In this document: positions 871 to 24,864 of the stretch, in pieces
Numbering within the stretch: position 1 is the stretch's first letter
Layout of the letters: the number at the start of each line of letters is the position of its first letter
IMG/VR virus record: IMGVR_UViG_3300030103_001291
Span: 1 to 25,345 of that record
Direction: 5' to 3' (one strand)
Length of the DNA: 25,345 bases
Source of the DNA: a virus
The notes under the pieces: model-generated
Database searches by the model: none
What the model was told of the DNA's origin: nothing
What the model saw: the letters and a program-made list of their open reading frames with translations, nothing else
Program-made: the position numbers and the translations under genes

Positions 871-1707
871 CTATGTATCCGCTATTTTCATAAATGAAAA
901 ATGTGTTCTTAAACTACTTGCGTTACCCCGAATTAAAGCTCCCGTATGCGTTTGATAAGAAAAAAACAATCTAAAAGTTGACGAATTAGTAACATCAAAA
1001 AAAGCAGTATGAACTAGATGAAAGTATGCTCCATTCCCTTTAGCGTTGGCATAAGCATTTGTGCGAGTGGTATAGTTAGAGCCACTATCAGTGCTTGTAT
1101 TTATAAACAGCCCCATATAATCAGCATTTCCACTTGAATACGCAGACCATTCTGCATGAACTTGCCACTTACCTGTGCTTGGAAAAGTAAAAACACCAGA
1201 ACTTTCAGTCATTCCAGTGCCAATTTTTTCCCACTCTGTAGCCCACCTCGCAAGATTAGAACTAAATGTACCAGATGAACTTCCTGAAATTGTTTCATTG
1301 TCAGTTTTATACCAAATATCTAGCTCTGTTATACCGTTGGCAAAGCCGCTAAACATCTTAGGTGAAGTTATATTAGCATCAGCAATTTTTGCTGTGGTTA
1401 CAGCCCCATCATTAATACGAGCAGTGGTCACGCTGTCATCAGGCGGCACCACAGTTTGCAAAGCCTTGCCTTGATAGATAACGTAAAAGGAATCTGATGA
1501 CGCCACGTTGCCTGTCATGGTCAGTGCATTGTCTGACACTGTGTAGGCTACACCAGCTTCCTGTCTGACGTTGTTTACAAACACCTCAATCTCTTGGGCG
1601 TTGGCTACAGCGTGTGCAAGTGTGTAACTTGCACCACCGTTACCAGTGATAACTTGCTTGTCCATAGAGGAGTAGCTGTTTGTTGTTTGATTACCTACAT
1701 AACCCAT
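871..1707 (-). CDS. Tail fibre/adhesin protein with C-terminal jelly-roll-like domain, 278 aa
   Basis: Residues 1 to about 90 form the same N-terminal module seen in the truncated gene at 1-311. Residues 91-115 are a linker with two copies of a short repeat, DSVTTARI and GAVTTAKI. Residues about 125-278 alternate aromatic and hydrophobic strands (GVFTFPSTGKWQVHAEW, the FRLFFSYQTH region, and the closing THFSFMKI). This pattern resembles C1q/TNF-like jelly-roll heads of phage and bacterial surface proteins, which usually trimerise. The likely role is a receptor-binding spike or short fibre on the tail. The domain assignment rests on pattern only and needs a profile or structure search. Confidence 0.75.
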   Translation of the reverse strand: MGYVGNQTTNSYSSMDKQVITGNGGASYTLAHAVANAQEIEVFVNNVRQEAGVAYTVSDNALTMTGNVASSDSFYVIYQGKALQTVVPPDDSVTTARINDGAVTTAKIADANITSPKMFSGFANGITELDIWYKTDNETISGSSSGTFSSNLARWATEWEKIGTGMTESSGVFTFPSTGKWQVHAEWSAYSSGNADYMGLFINTSTDSGSNYTTRTNAYANAKGNGAYFHLVHTAFFDVTNSSTFRLFFSYQTHTGALIRGNASSLRTHFSFMKIADT

Positions 1708-1714
1708 GTGTCAC

Positions 1715-2392
1715 CTATGTGCTAATCGCATCCACAGCAGACACCCACACATCGAGTGAGCTTGCTGTTGATGACCGAACAAACAATCTATCACCGCTTT
1801 GCACCACAAACTTTGCACCGCCATCAAGCAGTTGTAGCGCACCGCCAGCAGCAATGGGTGCGTCCTTAATAAGATAGTGTGCGCTGTCCATTGTTATGGT
1901 GTTGCCCATACCTTCACCATGCGCCACGCAGTAATAAATCAAAGAATCTGGTGTTGTGGATGATATAACAATAGTTGTCTTTGCCCCAGCCTGACCAGGG
2001 GTGCCAGTAGTCGTTACACCAGTTGTATAGCTTGAGCCACCAGCACCTGTTTTGAAAGCAAGCGTATGACCGCTGTTTGACGCATCAGACTGATCAAACA
2101 CATATGTAAAGCCTCTATACAAAGTTATAGCTGGCTTGTTATTGCCACCAAGAACAAAAACATTAGAGCCGCCAACACTCGCCACAGTCACAGCGTAGGT
2201 GAAGTAATCACCAGTACCCCTGTCGATTGCGCTATCAGTTATAAACGCATCTACAGTTATTGCATTGGCGTTGGTGTTTGCCATATGAATGCCAACAATA
2301 GTATCAAAACTATCAAAATCTGAACCATCTGGTATATCTTGGGCTGTAGACCCAACCCCTGTCAGTTTGTATCTTCTAAAATTTTGTGCCAT
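1715..2392 (-). CDS. Tail-fibre-associated protein with cupredoxin-like copper-site motif, 225 aa
   Basis: The middle of this protein, residues about 88-170, reads like a single cupredoxin domain. A strand YRGFTYVFDQ is followed by SGHTLAF (His109), a Gly/Thr-rich loop, and then YYCVAHGEGMG, which supplies Cys155, His158 and Met162. Plastocyanin-type blue copper sites use the same order: a distant His, then Cys, His and Met close together. Similar FDQSD...GHxL...YYC..H domains are known to me from marine myovirus and podovirus tail proteins, usually of unknown function. The N-terminus (MAQNFRRYKLTG) and the C-terminal strand-rich tail look like virion attachment or assembly parts. It sits between the gp17-type fibre and the adhesin genes. 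Copper binding is not shown, and the domain may be only a fold module. Confidence 0.7.
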   Translation of the reverse strand: MAQNFRRYKLTGVGSTAQDIPDGSDFDSFDTIVGIHMANTNANAITVDAFITDSAIDRGTGDYFTYAVTVASVGGSNVFVLGGNNKPAITLYRGFTYVFDQSDASNSGHTLAFKTGAGGSSYTTGVTTTGTPGQAGAKTTIVISSTTPDSLIYYCVAHGEGMGNTITMDSAHYLIKDAPIAAGGALQLLDGGAKFVVQSGDRLFVRSSTASSLDVWVSAVDAIST

Positions 2393-3708: not shown

Positions 3709-6700
3709 TTACTGCTGTCTATTCACATTACCACCAAAAACCCCATCATATATTGGGTCTAGGTAGAACAAATTACCAGTTGGAAAGAAAAACCTAGCAT
3801 TTTGCAGGGTGTCAGAACCTACATTAAAGTTTACAACATCACCCATAACATTAGCCATATTAAACAAATTACTGCCAGTAGGACCTGCTACAGCACCAGC
3901 TTTGGCTCCCATTGGTAATTGATACTGAGGCTGGTCTGTTAAAAATGGCCTCATACCTAGTTTATGATCACTAATTTTTTCCACCGCATTGTTTACGTCT
4001 GTAAACCAACCGCCAATACCAGACCTGTCAATCGCATTAATAAGCTTAGTTCCAGCATCTTCATTGGAATCTATACCGTATTGCGCTCTTTTAACTTCGT
4101 TAATAATACCAGCAAGACCAACAATTAAAAAAGCACCTTGCCAAAACGCACCATCTTTTTCCTGTAGACCAGCAGTAAGTAGACGAACCATAGCCCCCTG
4201 ACCATAAGACTTAAACTGCGTCAACATTGAGCCAAACTCTGTAGATGTCCACAATGCTCTGTCACCAGCCCCAGGAGTGATAATAATACGTTCTACGTTT
4301 TGATTTAGAGCATTTCTAAATTTCAGACGCATAGTTGGATCAGTCCACGCTTCTGTATTAGGCAACCACTCTTTTCCTTCTTTTTGACCAAACTGACGTA
4401 TAAGTTGTTGCATACGCATGTGGTCTTGCTCACCAATGCCATTTTTTAGAAACTTTTCTTGATCTGCTTTTTTCAGCTTAGACCACGGCTTCATTAGCCC
4501 TTCTGTCATTCTGAGCATAGTCATATTGCCAGCCATCTCTTTGAGAGCCTGATTCCATATATTTAGGCCATTAAACAAAAAGAACATTCCTGTTGCTTGG
4601 TTAAGCTTTCTTTCTAATGTAAAGCGAGAACCAAACAAATCACCTAAATCAGACATAGCATGGCTTCGTAAGCCAAGTGTTGCATCAACAGCAATAGCAG
4701 CTTGGTCTAACTCTTTTCTTCCCATCTGCTTAATAAGCTGTGCTTGATCATTGAATAATGTCTTAAACCCTTTGCCATAAGCATTTTCAAAACCTTCTAC
4801 CATTACAAGTCTTGCAACATCAGGAACAGATGAGATGACCGCACTGCCCATACCAGCAAGTGTGTTGATAGACTTCATTACCCTTACAAATCGACTAGAT
4901 AGAGCATGTGGGTCTTTGGATGCACCGTATGTACCACGAAGCCTGTCACGCAAACCACGAACATCACGAAGGTCAGCTTCCATAGCTTTTTCTAATCTAT
5001 CAATATCGGCTTGATTTCTTGTTACACCCACTTTGCCGTAATCATCAAAATTTTTGTTAAAAACAACCACTTGGTCATGAGAAAAGGTTTCTTCTAATAT
5101 TTGGTGCTTGCCACCCTTTCCCGTAACATTGGCGTATTCATCCATTATTTTTAGTGGTGAAAGCTTGCCTTTTGTAACTTGGTCAAAATCATCTAAGCCA
5201 AAGTTTATTGATATAGAATCATGCCCATTAGACTCTGCCCATTGGCGTAATTGCTTCATATATGACTGTCTTAAAGAGGCATATCTTCCGGCAACCTTAT
5301 TGTACCCAGAGTCAAACTCAGCAAACCATTCATCTGTAAGTTTTTTGTTTTCAGATAAACTCTTGCCTGTGCCAAGGTTTTTTCTTTTTTCTGCCATAGA
5401 AGACATAAAATCATCATATGCTTTTTTTGCTGCCTTTAGCTCATCTGCGTTCAAACCTGCTTGCCTAAACAAAGCAATAAGTTCGTCATCAGATGTTATT
5501 TTTAGAGGATTCTTTAATGTAATATCTACTTCATCTACTTGGCGTCCAAACCTAGATGCAGTCTTTGCATTTGTAGCAAAGTAAAGCCCATCCCCTAATG
5601 CTGATTCCTCAAAGCTTACTTTACCTTTACCACCGCTACCTCTGTGTACTTTTATAGAAATACCTTGACCAGTAACTATACTGTCTATCTTTTCAGCAAC
5701 CTTACCCATTAGCCTATTGTACTCTTGGGTAATGTCATCTATTACACCAGACATACTTACATCGCCATACTTACGAGTAAGCTCAATATCCATGCCCATA
5801 GTCTTTACATGGTGACGCAACAGTGTTTCTACATCATTCTCAAGAAACTCTTCAATTAACTCATCTGGTATTGCAAGAGTTCTAGCTTGTGCGCCTGATG
5901 GCGTTTTAACCCAATCAAGGCTATCAGCAGCACCATCTAAGTCTACATAAGGTCTTCTATGCGTTACTGTATCAAGAACATCATTAGCATAAGACTTTGC
6001 TGCACTAGCATCTAATCGCAGTGTAGTTCTGCCGTAAGTCTCAATGATTGATAAAAACCCTTGCTGATTATCCATAATCTTATCAATGCGATATATTCTT
6101 GGCAGATAACTATTTGCATTATTTGCTGTTACACCTTCTTCACGAAGTTTCTTTAACTTGGCTTGTAGCTCTGCTTTGACAGCTGGCTCTACAGCTTCAT
6201 CTATTTGCTTTTGAAGTTCACGTTCAAATAGCCTAACTGACTCAGCTTCTTTCTTAATAAAATCAAATGTTTCTCTATATTTTTTCGCAGCTTGTGTTAC
6301 AAAAGGGGATGCAGCGTCACCCATGTCATCTACATCACCTCTACGCATAGCCATAGCAACACGGTTTCTAAACTGAACTTCTCCTAATGCTTCATTACCA
6401 CGAAGTTTGTCCTGAACTTTAGTTCTCATCATTGTTATTGCACGACCAGCATCTGACTTGGATATAGGTATATTTCTGTAAGCAAGATAAGCTTCATCAG
6501 AAGCTCTTACAGAATCAAGAAGCTTAGATAAATATGTAGTTCTAAAGGTTGTTTCTACAGATTGATCCATCTCAATGCCAAGGTCTCTAACCTTCTTCTG
6601 CATCATACCGCCAACATCAACCATGCCTACAGCTAAATTACGCACAAAAGGGTTCTCACTCTGAAGCATACGAATGGTTGGGTTCCATCCTAGTTTTTCT

Positions 6701-8304
6701 AAGCCAATACCAGTTTCTTCAAGTGCTTCTGTTTCCATTTGTGCATAAGCAGCTTGTCTTGCTCTTTCTGGGCTGACATTAGCACCAGCAGCACGATAGA
6801 TACCTGTGTCTGGTTCTATAGGTACAAGTGATGAAGATGCTCTTAGTGGCTTACCAAAAGCAACAGCCAAAGAACCACCAAGCAAACTTGCTCCTGTAAG
6901 AATCAAAGCACTATGACTTGCATCTCTTTGTGTGTTTTGACTGTCAATTAACATTTGCTCTGGTGCTGTTAATGCGGCTGTAAATGTAGCACCACCTACA
7001 AATCTTCTGCTTCTATTTGCAGCTTGCATTATTTTGTAAGGAGCAATAGGGGCAAAAGTAGTAGGCGTTGCAAGGCCAGCAATGACTTGTTTGCTGACTG
7101 ATGCTGTAGAAGATAATAAAGCCATATCTTCTGCGTCTTGCTGCATACGCTCATACATCATCATTGATTCTGCTGGTGATCCAGATTGACGGAATCTCCA
7201 TAATCCATCACCACCGACCTTTTTCTTTAGCTCGTCATCTTCATAAGAACTATAACCTTCTACTGGCTTATACTTTGGGTCACTAGCTTCAATCATACGC
7301 ATTAGAGATGGAACAAAGTTATTCTGCCTAAATGCAGCACCCCATATATCCCAGCCATCTTCATCAAATACATGATATTCATACTCTTCTGGGTCAGTAA
7401 GCTGTGAAGGGATACGCTCACCGTAAGTTTCCTGACCATTGCCATATAGCCCTGTGTAACCACCATATATCTCATCTGTAGAAGGCAGTGCCATTTCAGA
7501 TTTTGTTGCTCTTGGTGGCTCAACAATAGGCTGTTTTTCTATTATTTCTTCTATAACAGGAAGAGTATTTGTTACTTCAGGTAGTATTGTTACTTCAGGT
7601 TCTGTTGGCATATCAACATCCCTGATAATTTCTTGAGGAGGTTGTGCTGGGTCTCTAGTGGGAACAGAACCTAAACCACCCTCTTCACCAGATATCATAG
7701 CTTCTTGTATGCCGTATTGTTTGTCTCTAGCTAACTCTCGTTCAAATTTTTTTTTTGATTCCACTTCTTCAGTGGTTAATCCAGCAACATAATAATTAGC
7801 TTCTAACTTTCGTCTAGAGTCATAATTATCTTTAAAATCTCTAAGGTTTTTTTCTGCTGCTGCCCAATCGTCATTTGTTACTTGACGCCAAAAATTAGGT
7901 GTTTCTGTTTCTAAGTTTCCATACTGGAAAGCTACAGATGCAATAACAGTTGCTTTATTTTTAGGAAGTTCAGAAAACTCTGAGCCAGTAGCATTTTTCC
8001 ATCTTTTTGACAGTAATTCTGTAGCTTCTTTTTTTGAGAAGTCATTAATAATTTTGGATTCATCATTAGTAATTGTAAGGTTAGAAGCCATCTCATCTGC
8101 TTCAGCACCCTTGAAGCCAAGGAAAGGTTTGAGTTTTTCTACAATATTATCAGGCAGACCATCAAGGTCTGATAATCGTCTTGCACCTAAATCAAAACCA
8201 CTAGCTATAGTAACTCCAGAATCACTTCCTGTTGGGTCAGGAACATACCCCTTTAATTTGTTGCCTTCACGTTCAGCAATAAAATCCCAATCAATATTAC
8301 TCAT
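3709..8304 (-). CDS. Giant internal virion/ejection protein (T7 gp16-like) with lysozyme and ADP-ribosyltransferase-like domains, 1531 aa
   Basis: By position (after gp14- and gp15-like genes, before the fibre) and size this is the counterpart of T7 gp16, the large core protein ejected into the cell ahead of DNA. Residues 1-175 look like a pesticin/T4-type muramidase: EREGNKLKGY gives candidate Glu13, SGVTIASGFDLG gives Thr32 and Asp38, and ASVAFQYG lies at 122-129. A Pro/Glu-rich linker spans about 205-265, followed by a long helical region with hydrophobic stretches around 395-480. Residues about 880-1085 resemble ADP-ribosyltransferase domains of phage polyvalent proteins: VHRGS (His887, Arg888), GDGLYFAT (Tyr908), LKNPLKI, DSISINF and DQVVVFN (Asp1077). 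The rest is helical, with a hydrophobic stretch (FLIVGLAGII) typical of membrane-spanning ejection proteins. T7 gp16 uses a different lytic transglycosylase and has no transferase domain. Enzyme activities are inferred. Confidence 0.88.
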   Translation of the reverse strand: MSNIDWDFIAEREGNKLKGYVPDPTGSDSGVTIASGFDLGARRLSDLDGLPDNIVEKLKPFLGFKGAEADEMASNLTITNDESKIINDFSKKEATELLSKRWKNATGSEFSELPKNKATVIASVAFQYGNLETETPNFWRQVTNDDWAAAEKNLRDFKDNYDSRRKLEANYYVAGLTTEEVESKKKFERELARDKQYGIQEAMISGEEGGLGSVPTRDPAQPPQEIIRDVDMPTEPEVTILPEVTNTLPVIEEIIEKQPIVEPPRATKSEMALPSTDEIYGGYTGLYGNGQETYGERIPSQLTDPEEYEYHVFDEDGWDIWGAAFRQNNFVPSLMRMIEASDPKYKPVEGYSSYEDDELKKKVGGDGLWRFRQSGSPAESMMMYERMQQDAEDMALLSSTASVSKQVIAGLATPTTFAPIAPYKIMQAANRSRRFVGGATFTAALTAPEQMLIDSQNTQRDASHSALILTGASLLGGSLAVAFGKPLRASSSLVPIEPDTGIYRAAGANVSPERARQAAYAQMETEALEETGIGLEKLGWNPTIRMLQSENPFVRNLAVGMVDVGGMMQKKVRDLGIEMDQSVETTFRTTYLSKLLDSVRASDEAYLAYRNIPISKSDAGRAITMMRTKVQDKLRGNEALGEVQFRNRVAMAMRRGDVDDMGDAASPFVTQAAKKYRETFDFIKKEAESVRLFERELQKQIDEAVEPAVKAELQAKLKKLREEGVTANNANSYLPRIYRIDKIMDNQQGFLSIIETYGRTTLRLDASAAKSYANDVLDTVTHRRPYVDLDGAADSLDWVKTPSGAQARTLAIPDELIEEFLENDVETLLRHHVKTMGMDIELTRKYGDVSMSGVIDDITQEYNRLMGKVAEKIDSIVTGQGISIKVHRGSGGKGKVSFEESALGDGLYFATNAKTASRFGRQVDEVDITLKNPLKITSDDELIALFRQAGLNADELKAAKKAYDDFMSSMAEKRKNLGTGKSLSENKKLTDEWFAEFDSGYNKVAGRYASLRQSYMKQLRQWAESNGHDSISINFGLDDFDQVTKGKLSPLKIMDEYANVTGKGGKHQILEETFSHDQVVVFNKNFDDYGKVGVTRNQADIDRLEKAMEADLRDVRGLRDRLRGTYGASKDPHALSSRFVRVMKSINTLAGMGSAVISSVPDVARLVMVEGFENAYGKGFKTLFNDQAQLIKQMGRKELDQAAIAVDATLGLRSHAMSDLGDLFGSRFTLERKLNQATGMFFLFNGLNIWNQALKEMAGNMTMLRMTEGLMKPWSKLKKADQEKFLKNGIGEQDHMRMQQLIRQFGQKEGKEWLPNTEAWTDPTMRLKFRNALNQNVERIIITPGAGDRALWTSTEFGSMLTQFKSYGQGAMVRLLTAGLQEKDGAFWQGAFLIVGLAGIINEVKRAQYGIDSNEDAGTKLINAIDRSGIGGWFTDVNNAVEKISDHKLGMRPFLTDQPQYQLPMGAKAGAVAGPTGSNLFNMANVMGDVVNFNVGSDTLQNARFFFPTGNLFYLDPIYDGVFGGNVNRQQ

Positions 8305-8305
8305 A

Positions 8306-11300
8306 CTACCATCCTAGCTGTCGCCAAACGTCAATCATACCCAAAAACTCTTTAGCCTCTTGTTCAGTAAGAGGAGCTTCGTTCATGTAGTTCATTCTAT
8401 AACCACCAAAGATGTTGTTATATAAATTAACTAACCCCTGCAAACTAACATCTTTACGTCCACTTTCTATTCTTCTAAATGTAGAGTTTAAAATAGTTTG
8501 ATCCATGATGCCTACAGCAGACCAAAACTTTTTGGCTCTATCAGTTTCAAGGGCAGTTAATGCTTGTGAATAAGCAGACTGACCAAGATTTATTCCATAA
8601 GCTTTTGTTTGCTTAAAATCATAAGTGTATGAATCTGTAAGATTATGAAGCTTACCGTAACTGTCTTTCATAACAACTGTATATGAAGGAGTTGCCCCAT
8701 AGTTTTCATTAGCAATATAATGAAGAGTTGGAGCTGGACGTCCACCTGGAATTATTCCAGAAGGTGTTCCAACTAAAGCAAGCTCTTCTTTTACCCTAGC
8801 ACCCATGCCGTCTAATAAATTACGATTATCAATTAAAAACCTGTCTTTAATGTCGTTATCAATATCTGCTGCTATTAAAGTAATTCCAGCATTGCCAACA
8901 GTGGCTTGTGCTTGTTTAAGAATAGGGTCTTGAACAAATTCTAACTCACCAGTTTCTGGATTTTCCTGAACACCCATTCTTTTGCCAATTTGACCCAAGA
9001 CAGAACGCATAGTAGCTACTGGTTCAGCTTGTGGATACTTCATCAAATGACTTTTCCAAGCACCTTCTACAGCCATCTTAATATAAGGGTCTGCTATAAA
9101 TGCACCTTCGATATTTCTTTGTCCAGCCCTAGCTGCCATTTGGTAAAGCATCTGATTATCTTCTGGGGATATATTTGGCTGAAAGAATTTGAAGAAACCC
9201 TTACCTTCTATAGCTTGAGCAAAAGTATCGTTAAACAAAGTATCTGCATCTGTTGCGCCATACTTGTCTGCGGCAAAGTTTGCTGTAGCACCACGATTCA
9301 TGTTCTTTGTAAGCTGTGCAGCTTCTAGGGCAGTCTCAATTCCAACTCTATCTGCGCTACGCAAAAACTCTATAGTGTCCATATCAAGCTGTTGGTAAAA
9401 TCTTGCTTGTATAAAATCTTCACGTTCTTCTGGAAACTTGGAACGGATAGCTGACATAGCTTGACCCATAACACGCATAGCTCTGTCTGCTGTTTCTGGT
9501 GTAGCAATAGCATTTTTAAATATAAGCTTGGCTTCTGGATGCAGTAAGCCATCTGTCATTACAGCAAAACCAGCTACCGCATCCATGCTTGCTTGAAATA
9601 CAGACTCATCACTTGTTGTAAGGCTAAAGTCAAAAGCCTGACCATTAACAAATACTTTATCAAAACCCTTTGCTTCAGAAAGAGCATCAAGCTCTGCTGC
9701 ATCTGGCATATAGCCGTTCATTGCTTTTTCTTCTGCTGTAGTAGCAAGACGCAACTTATCTTTACGTTCTGTATAAAGTTTGTCGTAAGCTTCTACTGCA
9801 TTGATGTACTCTTTGCGAGTTGAGTAATATCCGTTTTCACCAATAATTCCATTTTTTTCCAGACCAGACATAAACATCTCATTAGAATAATATGCTGGTG
9901 TTTTGGCAAAACTGGACATAGGGCCAAGAGACATTTGTATAAACGCACCAGCTTGACCAATATCTTTGGTAAGATAATAGTTTTCTGCTTTGAGATAAGA
10001 TGCTTGCGCTTCTCTTAACAACTTATGACTTTCTGGTCCTAACTGTCTTAATTCGGCTAATCTTGTAATCTCTTGCATAGCCGATAAAGTATTTTCTGCT
10101 GAAGTTACTTCTGGATTGTCAAGTTCAGCTTTGAGATTTGCATAAATGTCTTTATTTGAATTTGTAATTCTTTCGTTAAGAGATTTACTTGTGTCTCTTG
10201 ATGTAGTGTATAAAGTGGCTTGCTGTGTACCATCTAAAGTATGTATTGCAGATTCAGGGTTAGAAAACTCTTGATTTATATCATAACCATCCATAATTAT
10301 GGAACGATAAAAACCGCTATATACACTTGACCTAAACTTACGCTCTTCTTCGTTTTGTGCGCTTTGAATAGAAATTAACCCACTCATTGTAGAGTTGAGC
10401 AAAGCATCTACTTTTGATGCATCAATACCTTCTGTTTGTGAAGCTTGCAATTTTAAATCACGAATTAACTGGTAAGTAGCTGCTTCTCCATTAGCTGTAA
10501 AAGAACGCTCAACTGCGGCTTGTGCTGTACGAGACATAACTACAGTATTTTGCATATTTTCAAGCTGTAGAATTTGCTGGTCTGAGTAACCGTCTGCTTT
10601 AAGAGCTTCTTTTATCTGCTCCTGTTCAGCAGCTAACTCAGATATAAAAAGCTGCTGCCCTTCTTCTGGTAGATAATCATCATTAACTTTGCCAGCTACA
10701 CCATGAACTCCAAGTTTAACTGCATTGGCTTTAAATGCGTCTAAGTTTTGCTGTATGTTATATTGCTTTGTTTCTAGCTGTTGTTGAGCCAAAGCTTTAT
10801 TTTCAGCTATGGTATATTCAGCTACAGCTTTAGGAGCAAGAGAGGCATAAATATCTGGATCAAGTTTTTTTAAACTTTCCATATAGCCAGCCAGAGAACC
10901 TCTTATTGGGTCAGGGTCGTTTGGACTTTCAGATAACGCTTTTGCAGCAGCTATACGAATATCATTAGATGCGGCAGATGTATAACTTGTGACTGCGGCT
11001 CTTTTATAAGCATCTCTTACGCCTTGCTGTTCACCAGATGAATAAAGAGATATCTCTTTGCCGTAATTAAGATTTGTTAAAGGTACAAGGTTGTTATCTT
11101 GATCATAGGTAACACCAGCCGTTTTACCATCAATCTCTGCCTGACGAATTGCATCATTATATTCACGCTTTCTTATATCTGTTCCAATGCTCATAGCAGT
11201 CTGAGCAAGTTGGTCGTAAGAAGCAGCAGCTTGTTTAAAACCAGAAAGATTAGGTATTCCTGTTGGCTGCGCAAAAACTCTTTGTCCAGATGCTTTCTTA

Positions 11301-11308
11301 AAAGCCAT
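8306..11308 (-). CDS. Internal virion protein, T7 gp15-like by position, 1000 aa
   Basis: This is a 1000-residue, mostly helical, soluble-looking protein rich in Ala, Gln and Glu, without signal peptide or obvious membrane segment. It starts MAFKKASGQRVFAQPTGIPN and contains long heptad-like helical runs (around the LAQQQLETKQYNIQQNL and ELAAEQEQIKEALKADG segments). I see no enzyme motif. It lies exactly where T7 gp15 would be, between the gp14-like gene (overlapping in a TAATG junction at 11308-11310) and the gp16-like gene (1 base apart). T7 gp15 (747 aa) forms a periplasmic tunnel with gp16 during DNA ejection. The assignment rests on synteny, size and composition rather than on a recognised motif. 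Confidence 0.78.
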   Translation of the reverse strand: MAFKKASGQRVFAQPTGIPNLSGFKQAAASYDQLAQTAMSIGTDIRKREYNDAIRQAEIDGKTAGVTYDQDNNLVPLTNLNYGKEISLYSSGEQQGVRDAYKRAAVTSYTSAASNDIRIAAAKALSESPNDPDPIRGSLAGYMESLKKLDPDIYASLAPKAVAEYTIAENKALAQQQLETKQYNIQQNLDAFKANAVKLGVHGVAGKVNDDYLPEEGQQLFISELAAEQEQIKEALKADGYSDQQILQLENMQNTVVMSRTAQAAVERSFTANGEAATYQLIRDLKLQASQTEGIDASKVDALLNSTMSGLISIQSAQNEEERKFRSSVYSGFYRSIIMDGYDINQEFSNPESAIHTLDGTQQATLYTTSRDTSKSLNERITNSNKDIYANLKAELDNPEVTSAENTLSAMQEITRLAELRQLGPESHKLLREAQASYLKAENYYLTKDIGQAGAFIQMSLGPMSSFAKTPAYYSNEMFMSGLEKNGIIGENGYYSTRKEYINAVEAYDKLYTERKDKLRLATTAEEKAMNGYMPDAAELDALSEAKGFDKVFVNGQAFDFSLTTSDESVFQASMDAVAGFAVMTDGLLHPEAKLIFKNAIATPETADRAMRVMGQAMSAIRSKFPEEREDFIQARFYQQLDMDTIEFLRSADRVGIETALEAAQLTKNMNRGATANFAADKYGATDADTLFNDTFAQAIEGKGFFKFFQPNISPEDNQMLYQMAARAGQRNIEGAFIADPYIKMAVEGAWKSHLMKYPQAEPVATMRSVLGQIGKRMGVQENPETGELEFVQDPILKQAQATVGNAGITLIAADIDNDIKDRFLIDNRNLLDGMGARVKEELALVGTPSGIIPGGRPAPTLHYIANENYGATPSYTVVMKDSYGKLHNLTDSYTYDFKQTKAYGINLGQSAYSQALTALETDRAKKFWSAVGIMDQTILNSTFRRIESGRKDVSLQGLVNLYNNIFGGYRMNYMNEAPLTEQEAKEFLGMIDVWRQLGW

Positions 11309-11730
11309 TATGCTACACCTTTATTAATTGAATAAGCTGCGCCTGCTGTTTTTGCAAAACCTCCAAGCATAGCTGCCTTACCAGCGACCTTAGAACCAGC
11401 TGCACTAATCTCATATTTTCTGCGATTTGATTGTCCCATTAACCTAATATTAGAAATATCAGTTTTTGCTATTTTTATTTCATCAGTACGCAAAGCACTA
11501 ACTGAAGCTGATGTGCCTAGAGCAACGCCCTGAGATGACATAGACGTTCCAAGAGAAGCAAGTTGTCTTCTTAGCTGTCTATTACGCTCTGCTTCTTGTT
11601 GATCTGCTTGAAGAGAGGCCATTTCAGCTTGTTCTTTGTAAGCTTCTGCTTCCATATCATAAGCGGCTTTTTGCTGTCTTGCGGCAGCAAGTCCTATAAT
11701 GGCTGAAGCTACTTGCATTTCTACGCCCAT
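11308..11730 (-). CDS. Internal virion protein, T7 gp14-like, 140 aa
   Basis: This 140-residue protein begins with a mildly hydrophobic Ala-rich segment (VASAIIGLAAARQQ), continues as a long charged helix (residues about 25-60, AEAYKEQAEMASLQADQQEAE), and ends in an Ala/Gly-rich segment (GKAAMLGGFAKTAGAAY). T7 gp14-type core proteins, which insert in the outer membrane during ejection, have this helix/Gly-Ala architecture and a similar size (T7 gp14 is 196 aa). It is coupled on both sides by TAATG overlaps: its start overlaps the stop of tail tube B at 11730, and its stop overlaps the start of the gp15-like gene at 11308. Confidence 0.82.
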   Translation of the reverse strand: MGVEMQVASAIIGLAAARQQKAAYDMEAEAYKEQAEMASLQADQQEAERNRQLRRQLASLGTSMSSQGVALGTSASVSALRTDEIKIAKTDISNIRLMGQSNRRKYEISAAGSKVAGKAAMLGGFAKTAGAAYSINKGVA

Positions 11731-24450: not shown

Positions 24451-24864
24451 ATGAATATTGCACAAATCACAGTATCAGGTAACGTGGGTGCAGACCCAGA
24501 GATTCGTATGGTCAACGACACAAAGGTTGCTAACCTGTCTGTTGCTGTCAACGAAGGATACACCAACAAGCAGGGTGAAAAGGTGGAGAAGACCCACTGG
24601 TATCGCCTCGAAGCTTGGGACGGTAGCAATGGCAAGGGCCTCGTGTCATCTGTCATTGAGCCGTATGTGAAGAAGGGCATCACTGTCTTTGCTCAAGGCT
24701 TCCCAATCATTGAGGAGTATGAGAAAGAAGGCGTGACACATCGCTCATTCAAAGTTAAACTTGCAGGCGCAGGGTCAACCTTCCGTCTTGCGGGGAAGGC
24801 TTCGGCTGAGGGTGGCTCTGCACCAGCCTCCAAGAATGACGCAGATGACGACATTCCATTCTAG
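24451..24864 (+). CDS. ssb: Single-stranded DNA-binding protein, 137 aa
   Basis: This is an OB-fold SSB that coats single-stranded DNA during phage replication. Residues 1 to about 110 form the OB domain: NIAQITVSGNVGADPEIR, VANLSVAVNEGY, the HWYRLEAWD strand and the KKGITVFAQG strand are typical bacterial/phage SSB features. A short Gly/Ser/Ala linker leads to the acidic tip DADDDIPF, which docks SSB-interacting replication and repair proteins. The start has an AAGGAGAA ribosome site 7 bases upstream. It lies in the rightward arm, consistent with a replication module continuing beyond the right edge. The end of the gene forms part of a downstream hairpin. Confidence 0.95.
   Translation: MNIAQITVSGNVGADPEIRMVNDTKVANLSVAVNEGYTNKQGEKVEKTHWYRLEAWDGSNGKGLVSSVIEPYVKKGITVFAQGFPIIEEYEKEGVTHRSFKVKLAGAGSTFRLAGKASAEGGSAPASKNDADDDIPF

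What the first reader, a model, noticed from the sequence alone, without database searches (positions are those of the whole stretch)
5040..5670. ADP-ribosyltransferase-like domain embedded in an ejected virion protein
Inside the gp16-like protein (residues about 880-1085) lies a VHRGS...GDGLYFAT...LKNPLKI...DSISINF...DQVVVFN series, the plan of ART domains in phage polyvalent proteins. Candidate active residues are His887/Arg888, Tyr908 and an acidic residue near 1071-1077. gp16-class proteins enter the cell first, so this domain could modify host proteins before any phage gene is expressed, in the way T4 Alt does. The third catalytic residue is not the canonical Glu of the final strand (Asp1077, or Glu1071/1072, are alternatives), so activity is uncertain.
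Basis: partly seen in the sequence, partly recalled or inferred. Interest (0 to 1): 0.82.

Follow-up and report, generated by a model that had tools for sequence, protein, structure and literature searches.

The report
Swappable ADP-ribosyltransferase cassette in phage ejection protein
A marine phage carries an enzyme-like domain (an ADP-ribosyltransferase) inside the large protein it injects first into the bacterium, and closely related phages gain, lose, replace or relocate this domain as a cassette, which suggests it is an optional weapon delivered before any phage gene is switched on.

Summary
Residues 867-1104 of the 1531-aa gp16-like protein (window 3709-8304, -) carry the described motifs. 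The excised domain passes Pfam ART-PolyVal (32.3 bits, cut-off 31.2), its profile aligns with N4-vRNAP ARTs (E 1e-7), and a confident AlphaFold model (pLDDT 86.6, pTM 0.82) finds phage polyvalent ARTs (E 4e-6 to 8e-5) and, first in the PDB, the anti-CRISPR ART AcrIF11 (E 2e-3). Residue choices need correcting: Arg888, not His887, holds the strand-1 His position. Tyr908 is kept except for one Phe. Asp1077 is the expected acid, because this family is H-Y-D, so the missing Glu is no anomaly; the His-to-Arg change is. New here: the domain is an optional cassette. Backbones about 99% identical in DNA have it or a 13-aa linker; a related domain sits at a second site in others; backbones 98% identical in protein carry ARTs only 27% identical at different sites. 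The tree needs at least eight changes, yet the domain is under strong purifying selection. Both sites fall in the region that in T7 gp16 is placed in the host cytoplasm. Best reading: a virion-delivered, exchangeable ART effector, more likely counter-defence than general host takeover. Activity and target are untested.

The parts
3709..8304 (-). gp16-like internal virion (ejection) protein, 1531 aa, carrier of the ART cassette
   Evidence: phrog_342 E 3.5e-51, phrog_16310 6.5e-95; T7 gp16 hits the same phrog_342
7864..8298 (-). N-terminal lysozyme (Pesticin-type) domain, residues 3-147
   Evidence: Pfam PF16754 E 4.4e-40
6853..7125 (-). hydrophobic region I (residues 394-484), counterpart of T7 gp16 TMH I
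   Evidence: hydropathy; HMM alignment to T7 292-427 (weak)
6799..6822 (-). empty second insertion site (residues ~495-502); holds the ART in L059/L064/L112/L113/L121
4993..5706 (-). ART cassette as an insertion (residues 867-1104), replaced by a 12-13 aa linker in ART-less relatives
5056..5664 (-). ART-PolyVal-like fold, residues 881-1083
   Evidence: Pfam PF18760 32.3 bits; AF2 pLDDT 86.6; Foldseek
5641..5643 (-). Arg888, at the place of the strand-1 His of H-Y-D ARTs
   Evidence: invariant in 12 family rows, paired with HGT His by hhalign
5581..5583 (-). Tyr908, strand 2
   Evidence: Tyr in 11 of 12 rows, Phe in L033
5074..5076 (-). Asp1077 of the invariant HDQ motif before the last strand; likely catalytic acid
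   Evidence: invariant; counterpart of AcrIF11 D115/D146 by motif position, inference
5227..5454 (-). long helical insertion inside the ART (residues ~951-1026), variable among relatives; possible target-recognition part
   Evidence: AF2 helices at domain positions 84-156
3730..4992 (-). conserved C-terminal gp16 core, residues 1105-1525, with hydrophobic region II at 1386-1404
8306..11308 (-). gp15-position protein, 1000 aa, no family match (inferred tunnel protein by gene order)
   Evidence: position only
11308..11730 (-). gp14-like internal virion protein
   Evidence: phrog_418 internal virion protein E 7.3e-8

Best explanation
The gp16-like ejection protein carries, as an in-frame cassette, an ADP-ribosyltransferase of the ART-PolyVal (N4-ART, HY-[EDQ]) kind. 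When the virion ejects its internal proteins, the lysozyme end opens the wall, the hydrophobic regions cross the inner membrane, and the ART, placed between them, is exposed in the host cytoplasm at the mouth of the DNA channel. There it most likely transfers ADP-ribose from NAD+ to a host macromolecule before phage transcription begins. Only a handful of copies enter (as for T7 gp16), so it must work catalytically or on a scarce or local target. Because it is optional, highly divergent and exchanged between near-identical backbones, its target is more likely a variable host factor such as a defence protein than a conserved one such as RNA polymerase. Shown here: fold and family, cassette behaviour, selection, position in the protein. 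Inferred: ejection, cytoplasmic exposure, catalysis, target.
For: ART family and fold. Invariant Arg888 and HDQ motif across ARTs down to 25% identity. Ejection protein: with T7 gp16 topology from PMC8954989 and anchors on both sides of the sites. Cassette: near-isogenic pairs L033/L034 and L064/L063, 59-backbone tree with at least 8 changes, two sites, 98%-identical backbones with 27%-identical ARTs. Functional constraint: dN/dS 0.03-0.13. A fold relative that disarms a defence: AcrIF11.
Against: The strand-1 His of this ART kind is Arg here, which could alter or abolish activity. No experiment. No direct evidence that this virion protein is ejected. The PDB match to AcrIF11 is modest (E 2e-3, TM 0.25-0.38, rmsd 12) and the ART profile against the AcrIF11 sequence aligns only 21 residues. 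T7 gp16 matches the family HMM only weakly; the link rests on phrog_342. The counter-defence part is inference from variability.
Confidence: 0.62

Rival explanations
1. Alt-like takeover: the ejected ART modifies host RNA polymerase or the translation machinery so that phage early genes are favoured.
For: T4 Alt precedent; N4-vRNAP ARTs sit next to the virion polymerase (PMC5512222).
Against: A core takeover enzyme should be kept; here it is absent from most relatives (46 of 59 backbones), including one about 99% identical in DNA, and no other ART was found in the searched records that lack it.
Confidence: 0.2
2. Catalytically dead ART fold kept as a binding or structural module in gp16 (pseudoenzyme).
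For: His to Arg in strand 1; Tyr908 is Phe in L033.
Against: Arg888 and the HDQ motif are invariant while the rest diverges to 25% identity; few copies are ejected, unsuited to a stoichiometric binder; a structural part would not be absent from near-identical proteins.
Confidence: 0.15
3. Weapon against competing phages or for superinfection exclusion: the ART modifies targets of rival phages, or DNA.
For: Polymorphic, exchangeable effector domains are typical of conflict between elements (MuF toxins, PMC5576092, PMC11699363); DarT-like ARTs modify DNA (PMC9503650).
Against: Delivered only at entry and in few copies; no immunity gene recognised next to it (not searched in depth).
Confidence: 0.08
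4. Not an ART: a chance motif series in a helical phage protein.
For: Score for the whole protein is below Pfam's cut-off; the single-sequence model was poor; no match by sequence in the PDB.
Against: Excised domain above cut-off, profile E 9.9e-8, confident model with matches to polyvalent ARTs.
Confidence: 0.04

Closest known systems
ART-PolyVal (PF18760) / N4-ART family, prototype Roseovarius Plymouth podovirus 1 vRNAP (CBX87992)
   Same: Profile match, fold match to polyvalent ARTs, sits in a protein that enters the cell with the DNA, Tyr and Asp of the signature
   Different: Strand-1 His is Arg; carrier is a T7 gp16-type ejection protein rather than an N4 vRNAP or large polyvalent protein; optional cassette with two insertion sites
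AcrIF11 anti-CRISPR ADP-ribosyltransferase (PDB 6KYF, 8DWQ)
   Same: Only good PDB fold match; short G-L-(Y/F)...T-A motif aligned; D-E pair at the place of D1077-Q1078; variable helical region
   Different: Small free protein made in the cell after infection; His not Arg; no sequence similarity beyond short motifs; its target Csy1 is not implied here
T4 Alt
   Same: Virion-borne ART injected at infection
   Different: R-S-E class, a separate head protein acting on host RNA polymerase; not a cassette in an ejection protein
T7 gp16 (phrog_342) ejection protein
   Same: Backbone family, N-terminal wall hydrolase, two hydrophobic regions, gene order 14-15-16
   Different: T7 gp16 has no ART; the wall hydrolase is of another type
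MuF polymorphic toxins, e.g. prophage Bxa ART (PMC11699363, PMC5576092)
   Same: Virion-associated protein with exchangeable effector domains including ARTs
   Different: C-terminal fusion with adjacent immunity genes in temperate phages; here an internal insertion without a recognised immunity gene

Membership tests
ART-PolyVal / N4-ART (PF18760) | Profile score above the curated cut-off | tested here: inconclusive
   Excised domain 32.3 bits vs 31.2; whole protein 25.2 bits; relatives 17.8-29 bits, below
ART-PolyVal / N4-ART (PF18760) | Profile-profile similarity to prototype N4-vRNAP ARTs | tested here: met
   hhalign probability 94%, E 9.9e-8 over 58 columns
ART-PolyVal / N4-ART (PF18760) | ART fold | tested here: met
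   AF2 pLDDT 86.6; BFVD polyvalent proteins E 3.6e-6 and 8.1e-5, probability 1.0; TM-scores modest
ART-PolyVal / N4-ART (PF18760) | His in strand 1 | tested here: not met
   Arg888 at that place in all 12 rows
ART-PolyVal / N4-ART (PF18760) | Tyr in strand 2 | tested here: met
   Tyr908; 11 of 12 rows
ART-PolyVal / N4-ART (PF18760) | Asp in strand 5 | tested here: met
   Asp1077 invariant, just before strand 1078-1081; that it is the catalytic one is inference
ART-PolyVal / N4-ART (PF18760) | NAD-dependent ADP-ribosylation | not testable with these tools
   needs purified protein
T4 Alt / R-S-E clade | R-S-E active site with Ser in strand 2 and Glu in strand 5 | tested here: not met
   Arg present, but Tyr908 and Asp1077 in place of Ser and Glu
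T7 gp16-class ejection protein | Match to the family of T7 gp16 | tested here: met
   phrog_342: window 3.5e-51, L018 1.8e-59, T7 gp16 itself 0
T7 gp16-class ejection protein | N-terminal wall hydrolase, two hydrophobic regions, gene order 14-15-16 | tested here: met
   hydropathy only for the membrane parts, position only for gp15
T7 gp16-class ejection protein | Ejected into the host cell | not testable with these tools
   needs virion proteomics and infection experiments
AcrIF11 | Inhibits type I-F CRISPR by modifying Csy1 | not testable with these tools
   fold likeness only

The most novel reading that the evidence does not exclude
T7-type ejection proteins serve as a platform with defined docking sites for exchangeable, virion-delivered enzymatic effectors: ART cassettes with an Arg-Tyr-Asp active site are swapped between phage strains and inactivate strain-variable host defences at the mouth of the DNA channel, before any phage gene is expressed.
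Probability: 0.35. Interest if true: 0.85.

Novelty: new variant of a known kind. Interest (0 to 1): 0.64.

Why it matters
Injected ARTs are predicted for large polyvalent proteins and known for T4 Alt, but ARTs are reported in only about 3% of podoviruses (PMC9503650). Here natural near-isogenic pairs with and without the domain exist, so the effect of an effector that acts before phage gene expression could be tested directly, and the ejection protein becomes a candidate delivery platform with two natural cargo sites.

Tried and rejected
Single-sequence AlphaFold model: useless (pLDDT 53). Sequence search of the PDB with the domain or its profile: no ART. tblastn of the ART in 50,697 phage records: nothing for the window's ART or for the L059 type; weak 28% hits in Acinetobacter phages for the L056 type, not followed. 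Bacterial genomes: no relative. L013 hit: chance match inside a tape-measure-like protein. Direct hhalign of the gp16 profile to T7 gp16 alone failed; phrog_342 carried the link. Considered and rejected: intein or other mobile element (no such profile match; no terminal repeats apparent at the junctions); assembly chimera (ART-bearing alleles in 19 contigs from many metagenomes, frames intact where the contig covers the gene). PADLOC and NCBIfam: no match for the domain.

Full report
What is there. The window is a 25,345-base IMG/VR virus fragment. Its structural genes run on the minus strand: terminase, head-tail connector, tail proteins, then a gp14-like internal virion protein (phrog_418), a 1000-aa protein in the gp15 position and the 1531-aa protein 3709-8304. 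The last matches phrog_342, 'internal virion protein with endolysin domain', at E 3.5e-51; T7 gp16 is itself a full-length match to that family. Its N-terminus is a Pesticin-type lysozyme.

Is it an ART? The whole protein scores 25.2 bits with Pfam ART-PolyVal, below the cut-off of 31.2, but the excised domain scores 32.3. Relatives score 18-29 bits, so by sequence this is a borderline member. A profile of 12 relatives (A3) aligned with a profile of N4-vRNAP ARTs at probability 94%, E 9.9e-8. AlphaFold2 on A3 gave pLDDT 86.6 and pTM 0.82. Foldseek against viral models ranked a large polyvalent protein (E 3.6e-6) and a 'PolyVal ADP-Ribosyltransferase' (E 8.1e-5) on top; against the PDB the only good match was 6KYF (E 2.2e-3, probability 0.98), confirmed to be AcrF11/AcrIF11, with the second AcrIF11 structure 8DWQ at rank 7 (E 1.3). 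TM-scores are low (0.25-0.50), partly, I think, because of a long helical insert, so the fold claim rests on the three lines together.

Active site. Iyer et al. 2017 (PMC5512222) define the polyvalent ARTs as His (strand 1), Tyr (strand 2), Asp (strand 5). In A3 the invariant residues include Arg888, Gly889, Gly891-892, Thr915-Ala916, Gly920, Glu925, and His1076-Asp1077-Gln1078. The profile alignment sets Arg888 against the HGT histidine; His887 is Phe in relatives. Tyr908 is kept in 11 of 12 rows. Asp1077 fits the family's Asp and, by motif position, D115/E116 and D146/E147 of AcrIF11, where D115 and the D146/E147 pair were shown to be needed for activity (PMC12421852; numbering). So the acid is normal for the family and the unusual feature is Arg for His.

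A cassette, not a fixed part. Collecting gp16-like proteins by their C-terminal core showed that most lack the domain: residues 866 and 1105 are joined by 12-13 residues. L018 is 96-98% identical to the window protein over the middle and C-terminal parts but lacks the ART. L033 (ART) and L034 (no ART) share 98.5% and 99.6% DNA identity on either side of a 770-bp block that is 47 bp in L034. In L059, L064 and relatives a 25%-identical ART sits instead between residues about 495 and 502, and L063 is the empty version. L056 and L059 have backbones 98% identical but ARTs 27% identical at different sites; L015 and L064 96% and 31%; window and L004 the reverse, ART 95% and backbone 87%. On a tree of 59 backbones the three states need at least 8 changes, and well-supported branches alone force 6 for site 1. 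Recombination inside gp16 could distort that tree, but the near-isogenic pairs do not depend on it. Meanwhile the ART is under purifying selection about as strong as the core (dN/dS 0.03-0.13 and 0.03-0.08).

Where it would act. In T7, gp16 residues 411-1118 form a hub placed in the host cytoplasm, between two membrane regions (243-410, 1119-1290; PMC8954989). In the window protein the main hydrophobic regions are at 394-484 and 1386-1404. A family HMM aligns the first with T7 292-427 and a QFKS motif (window 1357-1368) with T7 1101-1113, weakly but in order. Both ART sites (495-502 and 867-1104) fall between, so the cargo would end in the cytoplasm, where NAD+ is. This is inference from T7.

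Mechanism. Best supported: a virion-delivered ART effector acting before phage transcription. T4 Alt is the delivery precedent, but an Alt-like core function fits poorly with a domain missing from 46 of 59 backbones. Strain-level presence and absence, replacement and high divergence under purifying selection are the marks of an arms-race accessory, so a defence-related target is favoured; AcrIF11 shows that this fold can do that. Few gp16 copies enter (T7 record: about 3; PMC8954989: 4 visible, hexamer after ejection), which favours catalysis over stoichiometric binding.

Novelty. Injected ARTs in polyvalent proteins are known, and swapping of the wall hydrolase between ejection proteins is known (PMC8954989). 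In the papers searched I found no report of an ART in a T7 gp16-type ejection protein, nor of a cassette with two docking sites; most subscription papers are not held, so this is not proof. I call it a new variant of a known kind.

Limits. All ART-bearing sequences are metagenomic; the host is unknown (terminase 55% identical to that of Pelagibacter phage Hodr, whose gp16 lacks the ART). No biochemical evidence exists.

Noticed in passing
window 7864-8298 and homologues in alignment A7: The N-terminal wall-hydrolase domain is also exchanged: only 7 of 23 diverse gp16 homologues have the Pesticin-type lysozyme; several (L041, L051, L055, L085, L086) have unrelated long N-termini.
   Followed up: partly
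window 1715-2392: 225-aa protein with a cupredoxin-like pattern (YYCVAHGEGMGNTI) beside small tail or fibre proteins.
   Followed up: no
window 24451-24864: Single-stranded DNA-binding protein (TIGR00621) on the plus strand, opposite to the structural genes; the window seems to span the junction of structural and replication modules.
   Followed up: no
window 6799-6822: The loop at the second insertion site varies from 3 to 40 residues across the family even when it holds no ART.
   Followed up: partly
L056, protein residues ~871-900: At site 1 L056 has an extra linker in front of its ART, as if joined differently from the window type.
   Followed up: no
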